A stretch of 64,000 nt of DNA from CBDFMG01 sp965221205 [NCBI: bacterium] (GTDB taxonomy: Bacteria > SM23-31). Shown here in pieces: positions 5,216 through 29,539 of this stretch; within the stretch, counting starts at the first letter, position 1; every line of letters starts with the position of its first letter. The notes under the pieces were generated by a model. The model was not told the DNA's origin. It made no database searches and saw only the letters and a program-made list of their open reading frames with translations. Location of the stretch: positions 2,604,001-2,668,000 of the forward strand of contig OZ244870.1 of the NCBI GenBank assembly GCA_965221205.1, read 5' to 3'. Made by a program: the position numbers and the translations under genes.

Positions 5216-5653
5216 TTACTCTGCAGGCGAACGCTCATGGTCGCCAGATGTAGTTTTTCCCTTGATCAGAATTCTGCGCGGAGTAAGTATGGTCTGAAAT
5301 TCTTTACCTGATATAATGTTTTCTGGTTGTCTTTCAAGAATCATTATTGAGTTAATTACAATATCACGGGGCAAATTGTGATTCGACAATACAAGTAAGA
5401 CATTTTTTATTGAGTCATGTCGAACTTGAAGATTAAGCTGATCTGCCACAAAATATTGGAAATCGGATGCAGCCCGCATTTGCTCTTGCAGGTTAAAGTA
5501 CTCATTCCTTTGAGGCATCCTGCTTGCCAGCTCACTTGCTACAACATTTAACTGAGCCTGAAAACTGGAAAAGGAATTACTCAAGTCATACGTTTCTTTT
5601 GCTATAAACGAGGCTGAAATCAAACTAATCATGGCAATTCCTAAAAAAACCAA
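5216..5653 (-). CDS. PilN-like inner-membrane protein, probably truncated
   Basis: This 145-residue protein has one N-terminal membrane segment (FLGIAMISLISASFIA), a coiled region, and a short C-terminal domain (NHNLPRDIVINSI, RRILIKGKTTSG) that resembles the PilN fold. It follows a PilM-like gene with a 13-bp overlap, the gene order of type IV pilus and type II secretion inner-membrane platforms. The C-terminus ends abruptly just before the mtnA relic, so it may be cut short. The family assignment rests on context and weak motifs. Confidence 0.5.
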   Translation of the reverse strand: MVFLGIAMISLISASFIAKETYDLSNSFSSFQAQLNVVASELASRMPQRNEYFNLQEQMRAASDFQYFVADQLNLQVRHDSIKNVLLVLSNHNLPRDIVINSIMILERQPENIISGKEFQTILTPRRILIKGKTTSGDHERSPAE

Positions 5654-7009
5654 TCGTCTAAAGTAAGACCAACAAAACCGGATATAATTTGTGCATCCTG
5701 CAGCAATTGATCGATTCCAGTAATACCTCGCCCAATTGTCAGATTGTTTAAATAGGAATAGTGCATTACCGGAAGATTTAATTTATTTTCAAGCTTATCG
5801 CGCAGGTTTGCTATATTAGCTCCTCCACCTGTAATTAATATTGAATGTATTGGAGATTCCCGAAATGTTGACATATAATAATCCAGGCTCCTTTGTACAT
5901 CATTTACCATTTTTTCAATATCATTATATAGCATTACTCCTATCCGCGCTACCGGAAAATCATAATTAGTCTTCTCCTCGGTGTTTGTACTCATAACGCC
6001 ATATGCCCTCAATAAATCTTCTGCTCTTTTTCTGCTTATATCTATCTCCTGATCATTAATGTCATGTGATCCGGTGAGTGATTTATCAGCGCCGATATCA
6101 AATAAAACAACTCCTGCCGCTAATTCCTGAGGGTAGAAATGCGCAAGGTTTTGCCGAATAGCCATATGTAGAAGGGTTACCTTTTTGAGGGGAAATGCCA
6201 CATTCCCTCAGAGCTTGCAACCATAACTCTAACTTATCCTGATCAATAATATATATCCGCAAATGAATTTGAGAAGAATCCTGAGACTCGCTTTTTTCAA
6301 TAATTTCATATTCAATATGAGGGTTTTTTATTGTCTCAGGAATCATTCTTTTGTGCTCTGAACATGATAGCCTGATCGAGCTCCTTCTGTCTAAAGCGGG
6401 CATGATCTCGGATGTGATGATCACGGGAAGATTTGAAATCATTACCGAAACATCGGCTATTGCAAGCAAATTAAGCGGAAGAATTTTTTGAAGAGCGAGT
6501 ATTGTTTTACTTCTAAATATCTCTGCTGAATCTTCCGGTTTTCGCCCAATATCATTTATTCTGTAGCGGTCTAATATGTTCTGAGACTTTTTCTTTCTTA
6601 TTTGAGTAAATTTTACATAATTCGTTCCCAAGTCAAATCCAAGGACAATATTACTTCGGATAAATAGCTTTCTAAGCTTATTAAATAAATCTATAATAAA
6701 AAATCGTTTTGCTACCCGAAATATTTCCCCTTCTTCCTTTTCTTCCATAGTAAGCAGGTCTTCGATTGAGCCTTCGTCTTTCTCCTCTTCCTGCCTTACG
6801 AACTTCTTTTCATCGAACTCTTCGGATCCGGTGTATTCTATGCCCGACTGAAGGCTTTCGATGTCGTGAAGCATTTCAATATCATCAATTCTGTGAAAAT
6901 ATCGCCACCCAAGTAAAACGCAAAGTATATACAGAAATATTATAGAGGATTTTCTGATTGTCACTTTCTGATTTGAAGGCTTTTTTATACCATGAGAGAG
7001 CTTCATCAT
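5641..7009 (-). pseudogene. PilM-like actin-fold protein, frameshifted
   Basis: The N-terminal part has a membrane segment, an acidic linker and then VLGFDLGTNYVKFTQIRK, a phosphate-1 motif typical of PilM. It changes frame near 6182-6186, where a run of five A would need to be four to join ISPQ to KVTLLHMAIRQNLAHF. The second part carries VLFDIGADKS (phosphate-2) and ILITGGGANIANL (adenosine motif). About 25 residues after DIGAD seem missing compared with PilM. Either a one-base insertion or a homopolymer read error explains the shift. PilM normally binds PilN on the cytoplasmic face. Confidence 0.6.
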
Positions 7010-19391: not shown

Positions 19392-19868
19392 TTAAAAATC
19401 AAAGGTTTTATTTTTATGCATTTCAGTCAATTCGTTATGATGCCGTTCTTCCTCTTCAATTAATGCTGCAACAGTTTTTTTGCTCTGTTCTGATTTGAGT
19501 TTTTTTAGAACATGTTTGTACAATTTTAAGGTGTTCTTTTCTGTTTTGATCCCGATTTTTATGGCAGATAATGGATGCATAGTTTTAATTTTTCCTTCTG
19601 ATATGCTCGGCAAAATATCTTCCTGAGATATTTCATTGATAAGAGTGGTAACATCATCATCAAGAGTAGAATTGATTATCAATTCAGATTCTGAGGACTT
19701 TAGTTTTTTGAAGGCTTCTTCGTGATCTCTCTCATCCTCTGCAAAGTTCTTTAATATTTCTTTTGCTTTTTTATTTTGTGACAAATGAGCCAGTCTGTCA
19801 TAAAACTGCGCCCCGTCCCGTTCCAATTTTACTGCAAGATCTATAACATCTCTTAATAGTAAATTCAT
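19392..19868 (-). CDS. Ferritin-like / rubrerythrin-domain diiron protein
   Basis: This 158-residue four-helix-bundle protein has the diiron ligand pattern: Glu in KLERDGAQFY (helix 1), ExxH in DERDHEEAF (helix 2), Glu in IKTEKNTLKLY (helix 3) and ExxH in EEEERHHNEL (helix 4). It lacks the C-terminal rubredoxin domain of true rubrerythrin. GGAGG lies six bases before the ATG. It follows feoB on the same strand with a 46-bp gap, so iron storage, peroxide reduction or iron sensing linked to Fe(II) uptake is likely. Confidence 0.85.
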   Translation of the reverse strand: MNLLLRDVIDLAVKLERDGAQFYDRLAHLSQNKKAKEILKNFAEDERDHEEAFKKLKSSESELIINSTLDDDVTTLINEISQEDILPSISEGKIKTMHPLSAIKIGIKTEKNTLKLYKHVLKKLKSEQSKKTVAALIEEEERHHNELTEMHKNKTFDF

Positions 19869-19914
19869 AATTAACCTCCAATTATGTGGAGAACAATATA
19901 TAAAAAAAACAGAA

Positions 19915-22047
19915 CTACAGCTGAATATTAAAATATGTGAAAATAAAGTTTATGAACCCTCCTACGAGAAATGCAAAAGGGAATATAAACGCTACTATGC
20001 TGATTGCCACTTTCATGCTGAGCTCTTTGATAATAATAAAAACATTTGCAATGCAAGGAATAAAAAGCGTTATCGTCACCATTGCTATCAATATTTGGTT
20101 TGCATTCAGGAGGCCGCTATTTGTAGCATCGAGCAAATAAACCGCACCATAATCACGCCGCAAAAATCCGATTAGAAATGCTTCGGTTGTTTCAACAGGT
20201 AGTCCCAGAAAGTTGACAATAAACGGTTCACAGAAAGTTCGGATAACTTCCAGAGCATGTGTTTTATCAAGGATAAACAGCAGAACCGTGCCAAGTATAA
20301 ACAAAGGAATTACTTCTTTAAAATACCACTCCATACGCGCTACAGTTTTTATCAGAATATTAATAGACTGAGGTTTTCGAAGTGGTGGTAGTTCGAGAAT
20401 AAACGCAGATGATTCTCCCGGAAGAACTTTTGAAGCAAGAAAACCGACAAATATGAGAACGCTAACAACAATCCCCGCCCAAAGAACTGTTGCTCCAAAT
20501 GATACGCTGCTCATCATCGCAAGAAGAACACCAAGCTGTGCTGAGCAGGGTATGCCAAGTGCGAGCAAAACAGTCACAATGATTCTCTCTTTTCTGGTTT
20601 CCATGATCCGGGTTGTCATGGTTGCCATCGTATCGCATCCCAAACCCAACACCATGGGCAGAATCGCTTTTCCATTTAATCCGATAAATTTAAATACCTT
20701 ATTGAGCATTACAGCAAGTCGTGGTAGATATCCTGAGTCCTCGAGAATACTAAATAGAAGAAAAAAAGTGCCGACAATTGGAAGAACAATAGCAAATCCG
20801 TAAGAAAGCGCCATCGTAATAACGCCATATTCTCCTACAAAAAAATCGTGAACTAAACGCACAATGCTTTCGAAAAAAGAGAAAATACCGATATCTCCTA
20901 TTGAGTAAACAGGTGTAAAAACTTGACGGGTCATTTCGATGCCTGTGGAAATTTCATTCGCGGAACTTATAGGTATGGTGAAATTCCAAGTGAGAATTTC
21001 TATAGCATGAGTATGCTGAAACTGCAAAAGAAAATCAAATATCTGTATTGAAGTAGGGTTTATATATTGTCCGAATAGCCCCGTTTCAAAAAAATCAACA
21101 ACGGTTCCAGCGCCAAACAATCCGACAAACCAGAACATGACATATAATACTGCAATGACAACACCAATTCCCCATATTGGATGCATGATCCAATTCCCGA
21201 AATCAGTAGACAACGGTTTACGGACTCCCTTGTCAATCCGATATACCTTTTCAAGAAGAGTATCCACATAATGCAGTCTGGTTTCTGCAATAACGGTCTG
21301 AAGAGGGGTTTTTGAAGATTTTTGTGTATTGTTAATAATCGCATTAATTTTGTTTATTGTACCGTTGGGAACAGTATCTGTAAGCCAATCCGTTAATGTT
21401 GTATCGCTTGACAGGAGCATGAGAGCTAAAGACTGTTTTGATATCGGCAAATCGGGGAGCAACTCTTCTAAATTATTAATGCCTTTCAAAATATGTTCGG
21501 GATATTTAATGCCGTTCCACGGGATACGTGAAGCAGAGATACATTTTTTTACCTTGGCTAGACCTTTTTGTTGTACAGCAGTTGTTGAGATGACAGGAAT
21601 CCCTAAAATATTTTCGAGATTTTCATGGTCAATCACTACTCCTCGCGATTGAGCTTCATCTGCCATGTTAAGACCAAGAACACACTTAACTCCCATTTCT
21701 GCTAGTTGAATAGTTATATAAAGACTGCGTTTTAGATTTTTGGAGTCTCCAATTTGTAAAACTGTATCATAGTCACCTGAAAGTAACAGATCTCGAGTAA
21801 CCCGTTCATCTTCGGATTGTGGAATGAGACTATTTGTGCCGGGCGTATCTGTAACATGTAAAACTTTATCATTGAGCTTCATTTTACCATGACTCAACGA
21901 AACAGTTGTACCAGGATAATTGGAAACAGTAACATACTTCCCGGTTAGGTATCCAAATACCACACTTTTCCCAACATTTGGATTGCCGACAAGGACAACT
22001 GAAGAGGTTTTTCTGGTCTCTAATATATCAGAAGATGTTTCAGTCAT
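19915..22047 (-). CDS. feoB: Ferrous iron transporter FeoB
   Basis: FeoB imports Fe(II) across the inner membrane. The cytoplasmic G domain shows G1 GNPNVGKS (residues 21-28), G3 DTPG and G4 NMAD. It is followed by the helical spacer and a C-terminal membrane domain with two Gate repeats around conserved cysteines (GLGCDTMATM, IPCSAQLG, IPCIANV). The length is normal. The ATG at 22047 has no clear ribosome site; a GTG at 22074 lies inside a 15-bp palindrome. No feoA accompanies it. The ferritin-like gene follows, and the MamK-like actin lies upstream. Confidence 0.95.
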   Translation of the reverse strand: MTETSSDILETRKTSSVVLVGNPNVGKSVVFGYLTGKYVTVSNYPGTTVSLSHGKMKLNDKVLHVTDTPGTNSLIPQSEDERVTRDLLLSGDYDTVLQIGDSKNLKRSLYITIQLAEMGVKCVLGLNMADEAQSRGVVIDHENLENILGIPVISTTAVQQKGLAKVKKCISASRIPWNGIKYPEHILKGINNLEELLPDLPISKQSLALMLLSSDTTLTDWLTDTVPNGTINKINAIINNTQKSSKTPLQTVIAETRLHYVDTLLEKVYRIDKGVRKPLSTDFGNWIMHPIWGIGVVIAVLYVMFWFVGLFGAGTVVDFFETGLFGQYINPTSIQIFDFLLQFQHTHAIEILTWNFTIPISSANEISTGIEMTRQVFTPVYSIGDIGIFSFFESIVRLVHDFFVGEYGVITMALSYGFAIVLPIVGTFFLLFSILEDSGYLPRLAVMLNKVFKFIGLNGKAILPMVLGLGCDTMATMTTRIMETRKERIIVTVLLALGIPCSAQLGVLLAMMSSVSFGATVLWAGIVVSVLIFVGFLASKVLPGESSAFILELPPLRKPQSINILIKTVARMEWYFKEVIPLFILGTVLLFILDKTHALEVIRTFCEPFIVNFLGLPVETTEAFLIGFLRRDYGAVYLLDATNSGLLNANQILIAMVTITLFIPCIANVFIIIKELSMKVAISIVAFIFPFAFLVGGFINFIFTYFNIQL

Positions 22048-22062
22048 AGAGAATATATGAAT

Positions 22063-22077
22063 TGTGAAATTCACAAA
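22063..22077. promoter_or_regulatory. 15-bp palindrome at the feoB start
   Basis: TTGTGAA-A-TTCACAA is a perfect inverted repeat 16 bp upstream of the feoB ATG. It resembles a half-spaced Crp/Fnr-type site but with too short a centre. An operator for an iron- or redox-responsive repressor is possible; the regulator is not known. Confidence 0.45.
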
Positions 22078-22089
22078 TCGTAGTTATGA

Positions 22090-22123
22090 AAACATTATAT
22101 TATATACATATAATATAATGTTT
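22090..22123. promoter_or_regulatory. 34-bp inverted repeat upstream of feoB
   Basis: Two perfect 16-base arms (AAACATTATATTATAT and its complement) flank a central AC. The position, 43-76 bp before the feoB ATG, suits an operator or the upstream gene's terminator, but it lacks G/C and a following T run. Dimeric DtxR- or Fur-like repressors bind palindromes of this size. Confidence 0.5.
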
Positions 22124-22219
22124 ACGAATATAAGTAATAACTTTCAAAAACTCAAAGTAATATTTTAATTTATGGGAGAAAAAGTTAAAAAGGCAGGTCG
22201 GAAAACGGAAAGATGTAGC

Positions 22220-22441
22220 TTACAAATCAACATTATCAATTTTCTGCATAATATCTTTTAATTTGCCAACAGCGACGTCCCGTTTCGTTTTGAGTAAGCC
22301 ATTTTCCTTTTCAATAAATGCAATTCGTTTATGAAGAGCCTCTATTTCATTTTGAAAAAAATGAATCTTGCTAATGAGATACGTAAGCTGATCTTCAGTG
22401 TTGCCAAGACGCTTAATTATTATGTCCAGAGTATGGTTCAT
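22220..22441 (-). CDS. Small coiled-coil protein next to the MamK-like actin
   Basis: About 73 residues from the ATG at 22441, almost all one predicted coiled coil (heptads across LDIIIKRLGNTEDQLTYLI through LLKTKRDVAVGKLKDIM). A longer frame starts at 22507 inside the end of the actin gene, but its first 22 residues look like out-of-frame actin sequence. It directly follows the actin gene, so a filament-binding, ZapB-like or anchoring role is a reasonable guess. I do not recognise the family. Confidence 0.65.
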   Translation of the reverse strand: MNHTLDIIIKRLGNTEDQLTYLISKIHFFQNEIEALHKRIAFIEKENGLLKTKRDVAVGKLKDIMQKIDNVDL

Positions 22442-22485
22442 TTCAGTGTAGTATCCCCCTGTTGCAAAACTGATTTGCCATTTTA

Positions 22486-23562
22486 TCAGTCTTTCATGCT
22501 TTCCCATTCGTCAAGCGGCATGTCTTGTGCAAGTTTAAGTCCCCCTATAGCACCAGCATATTTTGGTTCATCCACATTGTGCACTTTGATAGAGCCGATA
22601 TCTGATAGTTCTGCCTCAAGGATTTTATCCAAACCGCGTATCTTGCTTCCACATCCGGCCAATACGATATTTTCCTTAAGTGATTCCTGGTACTCCAGAT
22701 CAAAATTCGTAATGAGGTCCCTGACATTTTTTACAACATCAGGTATAATTGATTGACATGATTCATGCAGCTCTTTTGTAACATCATAATTTACAGCTTT
22801 ACCGTTCACAAGAAAGTCTGCTGTAATATCCTGCAGTTTTTTACCGGCAAAACCGTGCTGTTCTTTAATTTTCTTAAGCCCAAACTCGGTAATATAGGTA
22901 TTAGGTATGCGTGCTTTTAGCAAATTGTAGAACATCTGGTCTATATGATTACCTGCTTTGTAAATGGTTCGCTCATCTTCTTCTTCAGGAATTGATCCGT
23001 GCATTCTGCATATATCAAGCGTACCAGCACCAATATCGATAATGATACCAAAACCATACATCCCCATACCGTAAAAAACTAAAAATGGTTCTGAGACTAC
23101 AAGAATTGCATCGACAAGCCCGCTAAATGCTTTAACGATTGCCTGCTTATCTTCTTGCGATACCTGAGCAGGTGCACCAACAATTGCGTATACTTTTTGC
23201 TTTTCTTTTTTGCCGATAAGTGAAGCAAGATGTTCAACAAAACCAGCAATTGATTCTTTTTGTTTAGAATAATCTTTATGGTTTCTCTGTAGAGAAATGG
23301 TTCCCTTTTCCAATGGATAATATAAATTCAAAGACATTCGATTTTTGTAACATTCATCACCGAAAACAACCGGTTTTTTTAACAACCTGTATGAAACGAT
23401 ATCTTTGGGATAACCAACAACACTTGCAACATTAATAAGTTTTCCGGTACTTGTTGCAATTGCACTCTGGGATGTGCCAAGATCAATACCAACGAATAAA
23501 TTGTCTGATTTTTGCGATTGATCTGTCTGTATTTCGATAGTTTCTTGTTCTGAATTTACCAT
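22486..23562 (-). CDS. MamK-like bacterial actin
   Basis: This is a 358-residue actin-superfamily ATPase. Phosphate-1 is GIDLGTSQS (25-33), phosphate-2 DIGAGTLD (176-183), and the adenosine motif VLAGCGSKIRGL lies near residue 310. Several stretches recall magnetosome actin MamK rather than MreB or ParM: LFVGIDLGTS, SVVGYPKD, GDE, YPLEKGTI, IVGAPA, VVSEPFLV, DICRMHG and NIVLAGCGS. A 20-residue polar N-terminal extension is present. MamK-like filaments also occur in non-magnetotactic bacteria, so organelle positioning is not proven. It heads a unit with the coiled-coil gene and lies upstream of feoB. Confidence 0.85.
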   Translation of the reverse strand: MVNSEQETIEIQTDQSQKSDNLFVGIDLGTSQSAIATSTGKLINVASVVGYPKDIVSYRLLKKPVVFGDECYKNRMSLNLYYPLEKGTISLQRNHKDYSKQKESIAGFVEHLASLIGKKEKQKVYAIVGAPAQVSQEDKQAIVKAFSGLVDAILVVSEPFLVFYGMGMYGFGIIIDIGAGTLDICRMHGSIPEEEDERTIYKAGNHIDQMFYNLLKARIPNTYITEFGLKKIKEQHGFAGKKLQDITADFLVNGKAVNYDVTKELHESCQSIIPDVVKNVRDLITNFDLEYQESLKENIVLAGCGSKIRGLDKILEAELSDIGSIKVHNVDEPKYAGAIGGLKLAQDMPLDEWESMKD

Positions 23563-23597
23563 GTTAATCTCATGCTCTCAAATTCATCGGATTATCG

Positions 23598-23672
23598 TAC
23601 CCCTGGCAGGATTTGAACCTGCGACCAAAGATTTAGGAAACCTCTGCTCTATCCTGGCTGAGCTACAGGGGC
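23598..23672 (-). tRNA. tRNA-Arg (CCT anticodon)
   Basis: A full cloverleaf can be drawn. The acceptor stem GCCCCTG pairs with CAGGGGT, the D arm is GCTCAGCC..GAGC, the anticodon loop TTCCTAA gives anticodon CCT, and the T arm is GCAGG-TTCAAAT-CCTGC. The discriminator is A and CCA is not encoded. The anticodon stem has two G-U pairs. It decodes AGG. Length 75. Confidence 0.93.
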
Positions 23673-23952: not shown

Positions 23953-24630
23953 TTATCCATATTTTTCTTTAAACTCATCATAATTGTACAAAATGAATTT
24001 ACCCTGTTCTCTTTTTATTATTCCTTCTTCCTCGAACTATGCATAACACGTAATATTGTTTCTCTGGATGTGCCTGCCATATTAGCCAAATCCCGCTGAG
24101 ATGGTAATTTGTCTATATGCACAATGCCATTTTTCATAGTTCCACTATCTTCAGCGATTTGAAGTAGTGTTATAGCAACTCTTCCCGTCGCATCAAAAAG
24201 CGAAAGACTTTTTATTTGTGTATCGGATTTACGTAATCTGAAGGCGAGTTCTTTCAAAAACCCAATAGCAATAGTCGGCTTTTCTTATATGAGTTTTAGA
24301 AAATCTTCTCTCTCGAGTAAAAACAGTTCAGCCTCTGTGAGAATTATAACATTTGCTGAGCGCGCGAGTCCATCCAAAAGTGAAAGTTCCCCAAAAAAAA
24401 TCTCCTTCGCCGAGTATTGCGAGAAGAACCTCTTTTCCGGATTCACTCACGCGGGATATTTTAACCTGTCCCTTATTAATGATAAAGAGTGTGCTGCCTT
24501 TGTCTGTTTCAAGAACTACGGCACAATCTTTTTGATATGTCTTTGTGTGAAGACACGAATCCAGTTTTTCAAGTTCCTAGGTCTCTAACTCTACAAACAA
24601 TGGTATTTGCTGAATAATTGAGAGAGGCAT
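23953..24630 (-). pseudogene. Crp/Fnr-family regulator, multiply disrupted
   Basis: Piecing frames together gives a complete Crp/Fnr protein. It starts MPLSIIQQIPLFVELET, then a TAG (24577-24579), then the cyclic-nucleotide-like barrel (GSTLFIINKGQVKISR, GKEVLLAILGEGDFF). A +1 shift follows in a run of eight T (24393-24400), then LSLLDGLARSANVIILTEAE and a TAA (24285-24287). The winged helix has LPSQRDLANMAGTSRETILR, and a last frameshift precedes FEEEGIIKREQGKFI. Four lesions make it certain that no full protein is made. It was probably an oxygen- or redox-type activator. Confidence 0.85.
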
Positions 24631-28076: not shown

Positions 28077-29539
28077 TTAATCGTTATCTAATACATTTAA
28101 TTGTGGGGCTGTTTTGTGGAATCGTTCTGCTCTATGATAAGGCGTATCTGTGAGTGGAAGGTCTAATCTTGTCCCATGAAGCAATTTGTCTATTGTAATT
28201 ATCTGTAACTTTTGGAATTTCCCTTGTGATCCTGATTGATACAATCCTTTTCCAATTGCTTCGTCTTTCATTGGTTGTGTTGGATTTTCCAATGTAATCA
28301 AAACTCCTATTGGAGCATCATCTCTCACCATTACATGACCCAAATCTCTAATATCTTTTACTCCTACACGACCGCTTTTGACCGAAACAACGATTTTCTT
28401 GTAATCTTTTTTGGATATTTTTCCTTTTTCATGAAAGTACAACAACCCATCAACACCTTTGTCCGAACCCTTCTTTTTTTCGTACTTTGCCCCTATGAGT
28501 GATAATGCCCAATACTGGAATTCATATCTACCTTGTTTTGCCAATTCACGAGCACCTGGAACATCTTCCGGTTCGCCAATAACCTTATAATCTTCTTTTG
28601 GTAACAATTTAAACCGATTTTGCAATCTGAATTTAATAAGGTTTGTTGCAATGTGGGTTATGTCTATTCCAATCCAATGCCTTCCTAATTCCTCAGCAAC
28701 ACTTATCGCCGTACCACAGCCACAAAACGGGTCAAGAACAATATCTCCTTCGCTTGAGGAAGCCTTTATAATTCTCTCAAGTAACGCTTCGGGCTTTTGT
28801 GTTGGATAACCAAGTCTTTGTTTAGATGAAGGCATTATAGGTTGAATATCGAAAACATCATCCGGATGTTTTCCTTTAGGATGTGGTTCGTAATTATCAT
28901 ACACTTTGTCCCCTCTAAAGGATCTTGCTCTATACTGGAGACGCTCAAGAGATTCTTTGGAATAAGGCGTTCTAACACTGTCAGCATTAAAGTTCCATCC
29001 TTCCCCCTTTACGTAAAAAACAAAATAATATCATGGCGGCGACCAAAACGTTTTTTTGAAACTCCGCCCCCTCTATAATGCCATATAATTTCATTTTGAA
29101 AGTTCTTAGCTTCAAATATAGTATCCATGAGAATTTTTAAATAGTGGCTTGCCGTTGGGTCGCAATGCAAATAAATCGATCCAGTAGTTTTTAGTACTCT
29201 TTTCAATTCGAGCAATCTAATACACATCATTGTTAAATAAGCCATATAATCATTTTGTCTCAAAAATCCACGAAAACATTGCACCATTTCGGAGACATTG
29301 GGGGGAGTGTTTTCTATTATTTCATGGTACGCAGATTCAGATTCTTTCGTCCAATGCCACGTGTCTTCAAATGCGATTATCTGTGATTCAGAAAGTTCTC
29401 CCGAAGGCTCTTTAAACAATACGTTGTAATTTGCCTTTGAATTAAATGGGGGATCGAGGTAAATTAAATCCACATAATTGTCGGGGATATACTCTTGAAG
29501 AATTTTTAGATTGTCACCGTAAAATAAAGTGTTGTCCAT
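28077..29539 (-). pseudogene. DNA methyltransferase fused to an Mrr-like nuclease domain, frameshifted
   Basis: The N-terminal part has the catalytic motif IV DPPFNS and the target region up to HDIILFFT. The frame then breaks at a six-base homopolymer (29015-29020) and resumes with [20 protein letters not shown] into a part with GYPTQKP and motif [10 protein letters not shown]. The order IV then I fits beta-class N6A/N4C enzymes. The C-terminal 150 residues include GVDGLLYF and [11 protein letters not shown], a PD-(D/E)xK pattern of Mrr-type nucleases. If the frameshift is real it is inactive; one base change in a homopolymer would restore a protein of about 485 residues. Confidence 0.75.

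What the first reader, a model, noticed from the sequence alone, without database searches (positions are those of the whole stretch)
19392..23562. MamK-like actin and coiled-coil gene next to feoB and a ferritin-like diiron gene
The actin shares many short stretches with magnetosome MamK (SVVGYPKD, IVGAPA, VVSEPFLV, the DIGAGTLDIC region) and forms a tight pair with a small coiled-coil gene. The next two genes on the same strand are an Fe(II) importer and a diiron ferritin-like protein. An actin filament tied to iron handling suggests an iron-storage or other compartment that is positioned by a filament. No other mam gene is seen here, so this is a lead, not a magnetosome claim.
Basis: partly seen in the sequence, partly recalled or inferred. 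Interest (0 to 1): 0.72.

Follow-up and report, generated by a model that had tools for sequence, protein, structure and literature searches.

The report
MamK-like actin with coiled-coil partner
A poorly known bacterium carries a close cousin of the actin that lines up magnetic organelles, paired with a small coiled-coil protein and lying beside an iron importer, but with no magnetosome genes nearby; the pair looks real, the link to iron is unproven.

Summary
The gene at 22486-23562(-) is a MamK-family actin: 379 bits to the NCBI MamK model (cut-off 400), nearest solved fold the MamK filament. A 71-76 aa coiled-coil gene follows it by 33-54 nt in all four genomes found with an ortholog (window, G001, G002, G003). 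A divergent homolog sits on the other side of the actin in a fifth genome, G006. So actin plus coiled coil is the conserved module. feoB follows in 4 of 4 and the diiron gene in 3 of 4, but surrounding housekeeping genes are kept too. The FeoB is not of the magnetosome type, and the linkage was seen in one order only. The order-mates show no convincing mamB, mamN, mamQ or mamE. G006, of the same small phylum, carries a likely magnetosome gene cluster, and its actin falls in the window's clade. Best reading: a vertically inherited MamK-type filament with its own coiled-coil adaptor, working without magnetosomes on an unknown cargo. The iron-compartment idea stays open but weak; no encapsulin was found in six relatives. 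MamK relatives outside magnetosome clusters are already in print, so this is a new variant of a known kind.

The parts
22486..23562 (-). MamK-family actin, 358 aa; active-site residues E158 and D176 line up with MamK E143 and D161
   Evidence: NCBIfam MamK 379.4 bits; PDB MamK 5ljw 243 bits; AlphaFold model pLDDT 89.9, best fold match MamK filament 5ljv TM 0.88/0.97; residues compared in 36 sequences
22220..22441 (-). short coiled-coil protein, 73 aa from the likely start at 22441 (a 95-aa reading from 22507 overlaps the actin)
   Evidence: orthologs of 71-76 aa 33-54 nt behind the actin in G001, G002, G003; profile finds one strong copy in each of these genomes and a weaker one beside the G006 actin; 3 of 4 members match Pfam ZapB at E<=1, best 1.1e-7, the window's own member does not
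19915..22074 (-). feoB, Fe(II) importer, 719 aa (GTG 22074 or ATG 22047)
   Evidence: TIGR00437 374.5 bits over cut-off; orthologs 61-66% identical directly behind the coiled-coil gene in G001, G002, G003
19392..19868 (-). ferritin-like diiron protein, 158 aa
   Evidence: Pfam Rubrerythrin 45 bits; TM1526 structure match; E16, E46xxH49, E110, E140xxH143 invariant in 4 aligned relatives; behind feoB in G001 and G002, not on the G003 contig
23597..23672 (-). tRNA-Arg (CCT) directly upstream of the actin
   Evidence: ARAGORN; same tRNA upstream of the actin in G001, G002, G003
22090..22123 (-). 34-nt AT-rich perfect palindrome between the coiled-coil gene and feoB
   Evidence: 16-bp arms found by script; best palindrome arms in the same gap of G001-G003 are 4-7 bp

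Best explanation
The core is a two-gene cytoskeletal module: a MamK-family actin that probably polymerises with ATP into a MamK-like double filament, and a small coiled-coil protein that probably binds the filament and couples it to a cargo or a membrane. The module has come down vertically in this small phylum. One relative (G006) carries a likely magnetosome cluster and a related pair. The window's order has the pair without recognisable magnetosome genes, so the cargo there is something else. feoB and the diiron gene are stable chromosomal neighbours, not shown to be part of the module. Shown: family, predicted fold, retained active-site residues, conservation of the pair. Inferred: polymerisation, adaptor role, cargo.
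For: MamK family and fold. Window, G001, G002 and G003 actins form one clade (99/97) inside a clade of 7 with the B paralogs and G006 (100/98; SH-aLRT 99 in the 97-row tree). Coiled-coil gene 33-54 nt behind the actin in 4 of 4. The coiled-coil profile finds one strong copy in each of G001, G002 and G003, and in G006 one at E 2.3e-6 directly upstream of the actin (E 2.4e-7 among 13,031 open frames, next best 0.095 in the same locus), so the pair stays together through a swap of gene order while feoB does not. G006 has MamB/M-, MamA-, MamQ-, MamN-, MamO-, MamE- and MamP-like genes. G006 MamB and MamN give in G001-G003 best scores of 161 and 95 bits, about the level of G006's own ordinary paralogs (163 and 77 bits).
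Against: Only four genomes, all of one order, carry the A-type ortholog. The window's own genome is not held, so a magnetosome cluster elsewhere in it cannot be excluded. Completeness of the six draft genomes is not given, so absences are provisional; G002's best MamN hit (95.4 bits) is above G006's own paralog (77.4), and G003 has a CDF piece 37% identical over 216 aa to the G006 MamB (126 bits). The B paralogs have no coiled-coil homolog beside them. Coiled coils give inflated scores; a weak profile hit also occurs in G004 (E 0.009), which has no such actin. The G006 actin contig (13.6 kb read) shows no mam gene, so it is not proven to be that genome's magnetosome actin. The composition match of G006's mam contigs to its actin contig (0.96-0.97) is no better than that of G004 and G005 contigs (0.95-0.97). 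In the 97-row tree the program warns that G006's actin is a long branch.
Confidence: 0.6

Rival explanations
1. One reading: the filament positions an iron-handling site or compartment, and actin, coiled coil, FeoB and the diiron protein work together.
For: tRNA-actin-coiled coil-feoB kept in 4 of 4 genomes, also in G003 where the block breaks right behind feoB; diiron gene next in 3 of 4. A precedent: a second, distant actin (I read it as Mad28) lies close to FeoB/FeoA genes in 4 of the 6 Nitrospirota FeoB loci that I read (L152, L157, L158, L159; not L153, L154), that is in 4 of 11 FeoB loci outside the order; a paper passage gives mad30-mad17-mad28 as one cluster (PMC10278575).
Against: Neighbouring housekeeping genes are kept as well. 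The precedent involves another actin (21-23% identical to the window clade) and, in 3 of those 4 loci, another FeoB clade. G006 and the paralogs lack the feoB linkage on the stretches read. No encapsulin in 6 of 6 related genomes.
Confidence: 0.15
2. Relic: an ancestor had magnetosomes, the order lost the mam genes, and the actin pair is what is left, perhaps decaying or reused.
For: A member of the same phylum has a magnetosome-type cluster and a related actin-coiled coil pair. Magnetosome-linked MamKs occur in the other two main branches of the tree.
Against: Active-site motifs are intact in the window actin and the protein is kept at 55-62% identity across the order, which speaks against decay. 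The FeoB is not of the magnetosome type. MamK relatives without mam neighbours occur in other phyla, so an older non-magnetosome role is equally possible.
Confidence: 0.13
3. A DNA- or cell-shape-related actin (ParM- or MreB-like work) with no organelle.
For: The G006 actin is followed by a ParB-like gene (Pfam ParB_N) and a ParA-receiver fusion (read from sequence); the coiled coil resembles ZapB in 3 of 4 members.
Against: Sequence and fold are far nearer to MamK than to MreB or ParM; a separate MreB-like gene exists in G002 (named by reading its sequence); no ParB-like neighbour seen in the ORF lists of the A-type loci.
Confidence: 0.1

Closest known systems
MamK, magnetosome actin
   Same: Family model 379 bits, 36% identity to AMB-1 MamK, best fold match, same active-site residues, within the tree spread of magnetosome MamKs
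   Different: No mam gene in the 64-kb window apart from TPR matches to MamA and none convincing in three order-mates; below the curated MamK cut-off of 400 bits; own short coiled-coil partner
BeeR family (Verrucomicrobiota actin)
   Same: MamK relative in non-magnetotactic bacteria (PMC11929497, passages seen); second-best family (186 bits) and next fold after MamK
   Different: 28% identical by fold alignment; much weaker score; apart from the MamK rows on a long branch
Mad28 actin of deep-branching magnetotactic bacteria
   Same: Actin gene close to FeoB/FeoA genes in 4 of 6 Nitrospirota FeoB loci read
   Different: 21-23% identical to the window clade; only 33-39 bits to the MamK model in the two checked; the name Mad28 for these genes is my reading from context, not from a model
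MamK-like actins of Planctomycetota and the Desulfobulbaceae-type tandem pairs
   Same: No mam match in the stored flanks (0 of 21 and 0 of 10 loci); a coiled-coil-like gene next to the actin in the three examples scanned (Pfam matches all weak and under cut-off)
   Different: Those genes are 168-306 aa and not recognisably related to the window's 73-aa protein

Membership tests
MamK family (sequence) | NCBIfam NF040964 score at or over the curated cut-off (400 bits) | tested here: not met
   379.4 bits; the G001 ortholog scores 409.9, over the cut-off; G006 380.9, under it
MamK family (sequence) | Groups with magnetosome MamKs rather than with BeeR or MreB | tested here: met
   97-row tree with BeeR and MreB as outgroups and 36-row tree; magnetosome-linked MamKs lie in the Pseudomonadota and Nitrospirota branches, G006's actin in the window's branch; rooting is unsure because both outgroups have very long branches
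MamK family (sequence) | MamK fold and active-site residues | tested here: met
   predicted model: 5ljv TM 0.88/0.97, rmsd 1.4; E158 and D176 kept
Magnetosome MamK (function) | Lies in a magnetosome gene cluster | tested here: not met
   No match of the MamB, M, E, P, Q or I probes in the window at E below 0.1; only TPR matches to MamA, best E 2.7e-6 over 34 aa. The MamB and MamI probes were named from their position in L016, not from a model
Magnetosome MamK (function) | Organism has the mam set elsewhere | tested here: inconclusive
   Own genome not held; G001-G003 show only ordinary-looking relatives, completeness unknown
Magnetosome MamK (function) | Forms filaments that align organelles | not testable with these tools
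   needs protein or cells
BeeR | NF053558 score over cut-off (530 bits) | tested here: not met
   186.4 bits
Magnetosome-type FeoB clade | FeoB groups with FeoBs of magnetosome loci | tested here: not met
   22-row FeoB tree: FeoBs of G006, G012, G011, G007 and G008 form one set (100/99); the window set joins other Nitrospirota and planctomycete FeoBs (92/98, under the star threshold), one of which (G009) lies 6 kb from a mamK
Encapsulin iron compartment | Encapsulin shell gene (PF04454) in the genome | tested here: not met
   0 of 6 related genomes; 3 of 14 control genomes ring; window genome itself not held
Ferrosome | fez genes | not tested
   genome searches spent on magnetosome, feoB, coiled-coil and encapsulin probes

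The most novel reading that the evidence does not exclude
MamK-type filaments with dedicated coiled-coil adaptors are a general bacterial organelle-positioning cytoskeleton, and the magnetosome is only one cargo. In this order the filament positions an Fe(II)-uptake or iron-storage site in the absence of magnetosomes, and related pairs serve other cargos in Planctomycetota and Desulfobulbaceae.
Probability: 0.12. Interest if true: 0.8.

Novelty: new variant of a known kind. Interest (0 to 1): 0.45.

Why it matters
If the pair works without magnetosomes, it gives a way to ask whether MamK filaments were invented for magnetosomes or recruited from an older positioning system. A small phylum with both states (G006 with a likely magnetosome cluster, the window's order apparently without) is a good place for that test. 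The adjacent feoB makes an iron-related cargo worth one direct experiment.

Tried and rejected
Plasmid tblastn and a viral-contig scan with the actin: no match. FeoB as remnant of a magnetosome cluster: rejected by the FeoB tree. Encapsulin compartment: no shell gene in 6 of 6 related genomes. MamQ and MamE models as presence tests: not decisive, since G006's own MamQ-like gene scores 109.8 against a cut-off of 250 while a LemA-type gene in the same genome scores 101, and the MamE model matches proteases in 12 of 14 control genomes. A conserved palindrome before feoB: found in the window only. Promoter-like sites: 28 found against 19.0 (sd 3.9) in shuffles, terminator-like 2 against 2.9; not used. 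Naming the phylum: not achieved; the nearest named record is only 'bacterium isolate PL23a_bin.125'. Rooting the MamK tree with BeeR and MreB: both branches are too long to trust. Rows dropped: L026 (translation failed, 8 aa) and L095 (partial third copy of G001) before the 97-row tree; the 36-row tree is a subset that I picked from the same loci. Of 135 confirmed relatives in the genome scan only the best 80 were returned.
Full report
What is there. The four genes lie on the minus strand as described. The actin (22486-23562) scores 379.4 bits with the NCBI MamK model, 186.4 with BeeR and 67 with MreB. It is 36% identical to AMB-1 MamK, and its AlphaFold model (pLDDT 89.9) fits the MamK filament best (5ljv, TM 0.88/0.97, rmsd 1.4), with BeeR next among other proteins. 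The residues that line up with MamK E143 and D161 are kept (E158, D176); that these are catalytic residues of MamK is recalled. The short gene behind it most likely starts at 22441 and encodes 73 residues. FeoB and a ferritin-like diiron protein follow.

Relatives. No whole genome is held for the window. One scan of genome contigs gave 135 confirmed relatives, of which the best 80 became loci. The nearest, L001 (55% identity, an unnamed 'bacterium isolate PL23a_bin.125'), led to genome G001. Its order holds 3 genomes and its phylum 6 in the collection. Four of the 6 carry MamK-type actins at E <= 1e-20: G001 three (one partial), G002 one, G003 two, G006 one; G004 and G005 none.

Two kinds of copy. 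The window, G001, G002 and G003 share an A-type ortholog (99/97 in a 36-row tree). A second type, B, occurs in G001 and G003; both full-length B proteins and the partial third G001 copy have Q in place of the active-site E. G006's single copy falls in the same clade of 7 (100/98). In the 97-row tree with BeeR and MreB this clade stands beside a branch of Planctomycetota and Nitrospirota with two Pseudomonadota rows (27 rows) and a mostly Pseudomonadota branch (61 rows); the program warns there of long branches, among them G006's actin. Magnetosome-linked MamKs occur in the latter two branches (mam neighbours in L016, L018, L078, L080 and many others), and G006 itself has a magnetosome-type cluster. 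So the window's actin is nested within the spread of magnetosome MamKs wherever the root lies, provided that G006's actin serves its magnetosomes, which is not shown.

The neighbourhood. In all 4 A-type loci the order tRNA-Arg(CCT), actin, coiled coil, feoB is kept. Gaps are 33-54 nt between actin and coiled coil and 102-373 nt between coiled coil and feoB. The diiron gene follows in 3 of 4; in G003 other genes follow feoB. But coaX and crp upstream, and the flippase-type and TolB-like genes downstream, are also kept in G001 and G002, so this is a stable chromosomal block and not only an operon. G001 and G003 have a gene before the tRNA that I read as tldD-like and that finds no match in the window.

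The pair. A profile of the four coiled-coil proteins finds one strong copy in each of G001, G002 and G003 (E 6e-35 or better) and one weaker one in G006 (E 2.3e-6), which lies directly upstream of the G006 actin; the other hits at E <= 1 are weak, the best of them in G004 (E 0.009). In a search of 13,031 open frames from fetched loci the G006 frame has E 2.4e-7 and the next hit 0.095, a coiled-coil protein of the same locus. The actin and this coiled coil therefore stay together although their order is swapped, whereas feoB is not on the 13.6 kb read around the G006 actin. No homolog turned up beside the B paralogs. Pfam ZapB matches 3 of the 4 members at E <= 1 (best 1.1e-7), not the window's own.

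Magnetosome genes. Mam probes find nothing in the window beyond TPR matches to MamA (best E 2.7e-6 over 34 aa). G006 carries MamB/M-like (263 bits), MamA-like (170), MamQ-like (111), MamN-like (372), MamO-type (186, the TauE part), MamE-like (280) and MamP-like (281) genes on two contigs; all are under NCBI's curated cut-offs, but together they are hard to read otherwise. These contigs resemble G006's actin contig in composition (tetranucleotide correlation 0.96-0.97), unlike Nitrospirota and Nitrospinota magnetosome loci (0.70 or less), but contigs of G004 and G005 are as close (0.95-0.97), so the test does not fix them to G006. In G001-G005 the G006 MamB finds at best 161 bits (33%, G001) and, over 216 residues only, 37% (126 bits, G003), against 163 bits for an ordinary paralog inside G006. 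The G006 MamN finds at best 95 bits (25%, G002), against 77 for a paralog inside G006. Completeness of these drafts is not given, so absence is provisional.

FeoB. In a 22-row tree the FeoBs of G006 (in the cluster above), G012 (beside MamB-, MamQ- and MamA-like genes) and G011 (on the contig of its mamK) form one clade with those of G007 and G008 (100/99). The stretches read around the G007 and G008 genes show no mamK; I class them by their likeness to the G011 locus. The window's FeoB lies elsewhere, with its order-mates and with Nitrospirota and planctomycete FeoBs that have FeoA, and in two of them a Fur-like gene (read by eye), beside them (92/98). One of these (G009) does lie some 6 kb from a mamK. 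In 4 of the 6 Nitrospirota FeoB loci read (4 of the 11 FeoB loci outside the order given to the call) a second actin, which I read as Mad28 from context, lies close to FeoB/FeoA. This is a precedent for an actin near an iron importer, but with another actin and mostly another FeoB.

MamK relatives outside magnetosome clusters. None of the 21 Planctomycetota-branch loci and none of the 10 Desulfobulbaceae-type loci has a mam match in the stored flanks (flanks vary from under 1 kb to 8 kb). Ten Magnetococcales loci show none either, which may be second copies. In the three non-Magnetococcales examples scanned the gene beside the actin looks coiled-coil-like, by weak matches only.

Literature. 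Passages of PMC11929497 say BeeR is a MamK relative in non-magnetotactic bacteria. Passages of PMC7449369 report 2798 potential MamK sequences in metagenomes, of which 227 remained after scaffolds were checked for other Mam proteins. Passages of PMC7602337 say feoB is usually part of magnetosome clusters and name phyla with magnetotactic members. Passages of PMC12748827 deal with MamK, Mad28 and coiled-coil Mad proteins, those of PMC10653835 and PMC12713370 with MamK and Mad28. A passage of PMC10278575 gives mad30, mad17 and mad28 in one cluster. Five searches (MamK-like with Planctomycetes; MamK with non-magnetotactic bacteria; magnetosome clusters by phylum; actin-like with feoB or ferrosome; MamK homologs in non-MTB) listed no title on this actin-coiled coil-feoB arrangement; only the openly licensed library was searched, and lists were capped.

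Judgement. The pair of actin and coiled coil is the real, conserved unit, and the most likely work is positioning of an unknown cargo by a MamK-type filament. The iron link is a fair lead with one supporting fact (4 of 4 adjacency) and several facts against a specific link.

Noticed in passing
L112 553-9793 and L113 4683-10087 (G006, contigs C135 and C181): A likely deep-branching magnetosome gene cluster (MamB/M, MamA, MamQ, MamN joined to a PDZ part, MamO-type TauE, MamE, MamP, FeoB, FeoA-like) in a genome of the window's small phylum, whose name I could not find out.
   Followed up: partly
L097 6927-13567 (G006): The G006 MamK-type actin lies with an SH3-coiled-coil protein, a short coiled coil, a ParB-like gene and a ParA-receiver fusion.
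   Followed up: partly
L093 4722-5804, L094 9372-10466, L095 8496-9233: B-type paralogous actins in G003 and G001 carry Q in place of the active-site E; a similar 409-aa gene lies within a few kb in both full loci, and NfeD- and SPFH-like genes lie beside the G001 copy (names from reading the sequence).
   Followed up: partly
L002 6982-7902, L010 7144-7896 and other Planctomycetota-branch loci: MamK-like actins of Planctomycetota without mam neighbours, with a coiled-coil-like gene of about 250-300 aa upstream in the two examples scanned.
   Followed up: partly
L055 8001-10694 and 7 further loci: Tandem pairs of MamK-like actins in Desulfobulbaceae and similar genomes; a coiled-coil-like gene lies between the two actins in the example scanned (L055).
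   Followed up: partly
L152, L157, L158, L159: A second, distant actin (probably Mad28) close to FeoB/FeoA genes in 4 of 6 Nitrospirota FeoB loci read.
   Followed up: yes
window 24018-24257, 5641-7009 and 28077-29539: Genes that look split by frameshifts (crp reads 79 aa against 225 aa in G002; frames that I read as PilM-like and methyltransferase are broken): assembly errors or decay.
   Followed up: no
window 22090-22123: A 34-nt AT-rich perfect palindrome just before feoB, not seen in the same gap of three relatives.
   Followed up: partly
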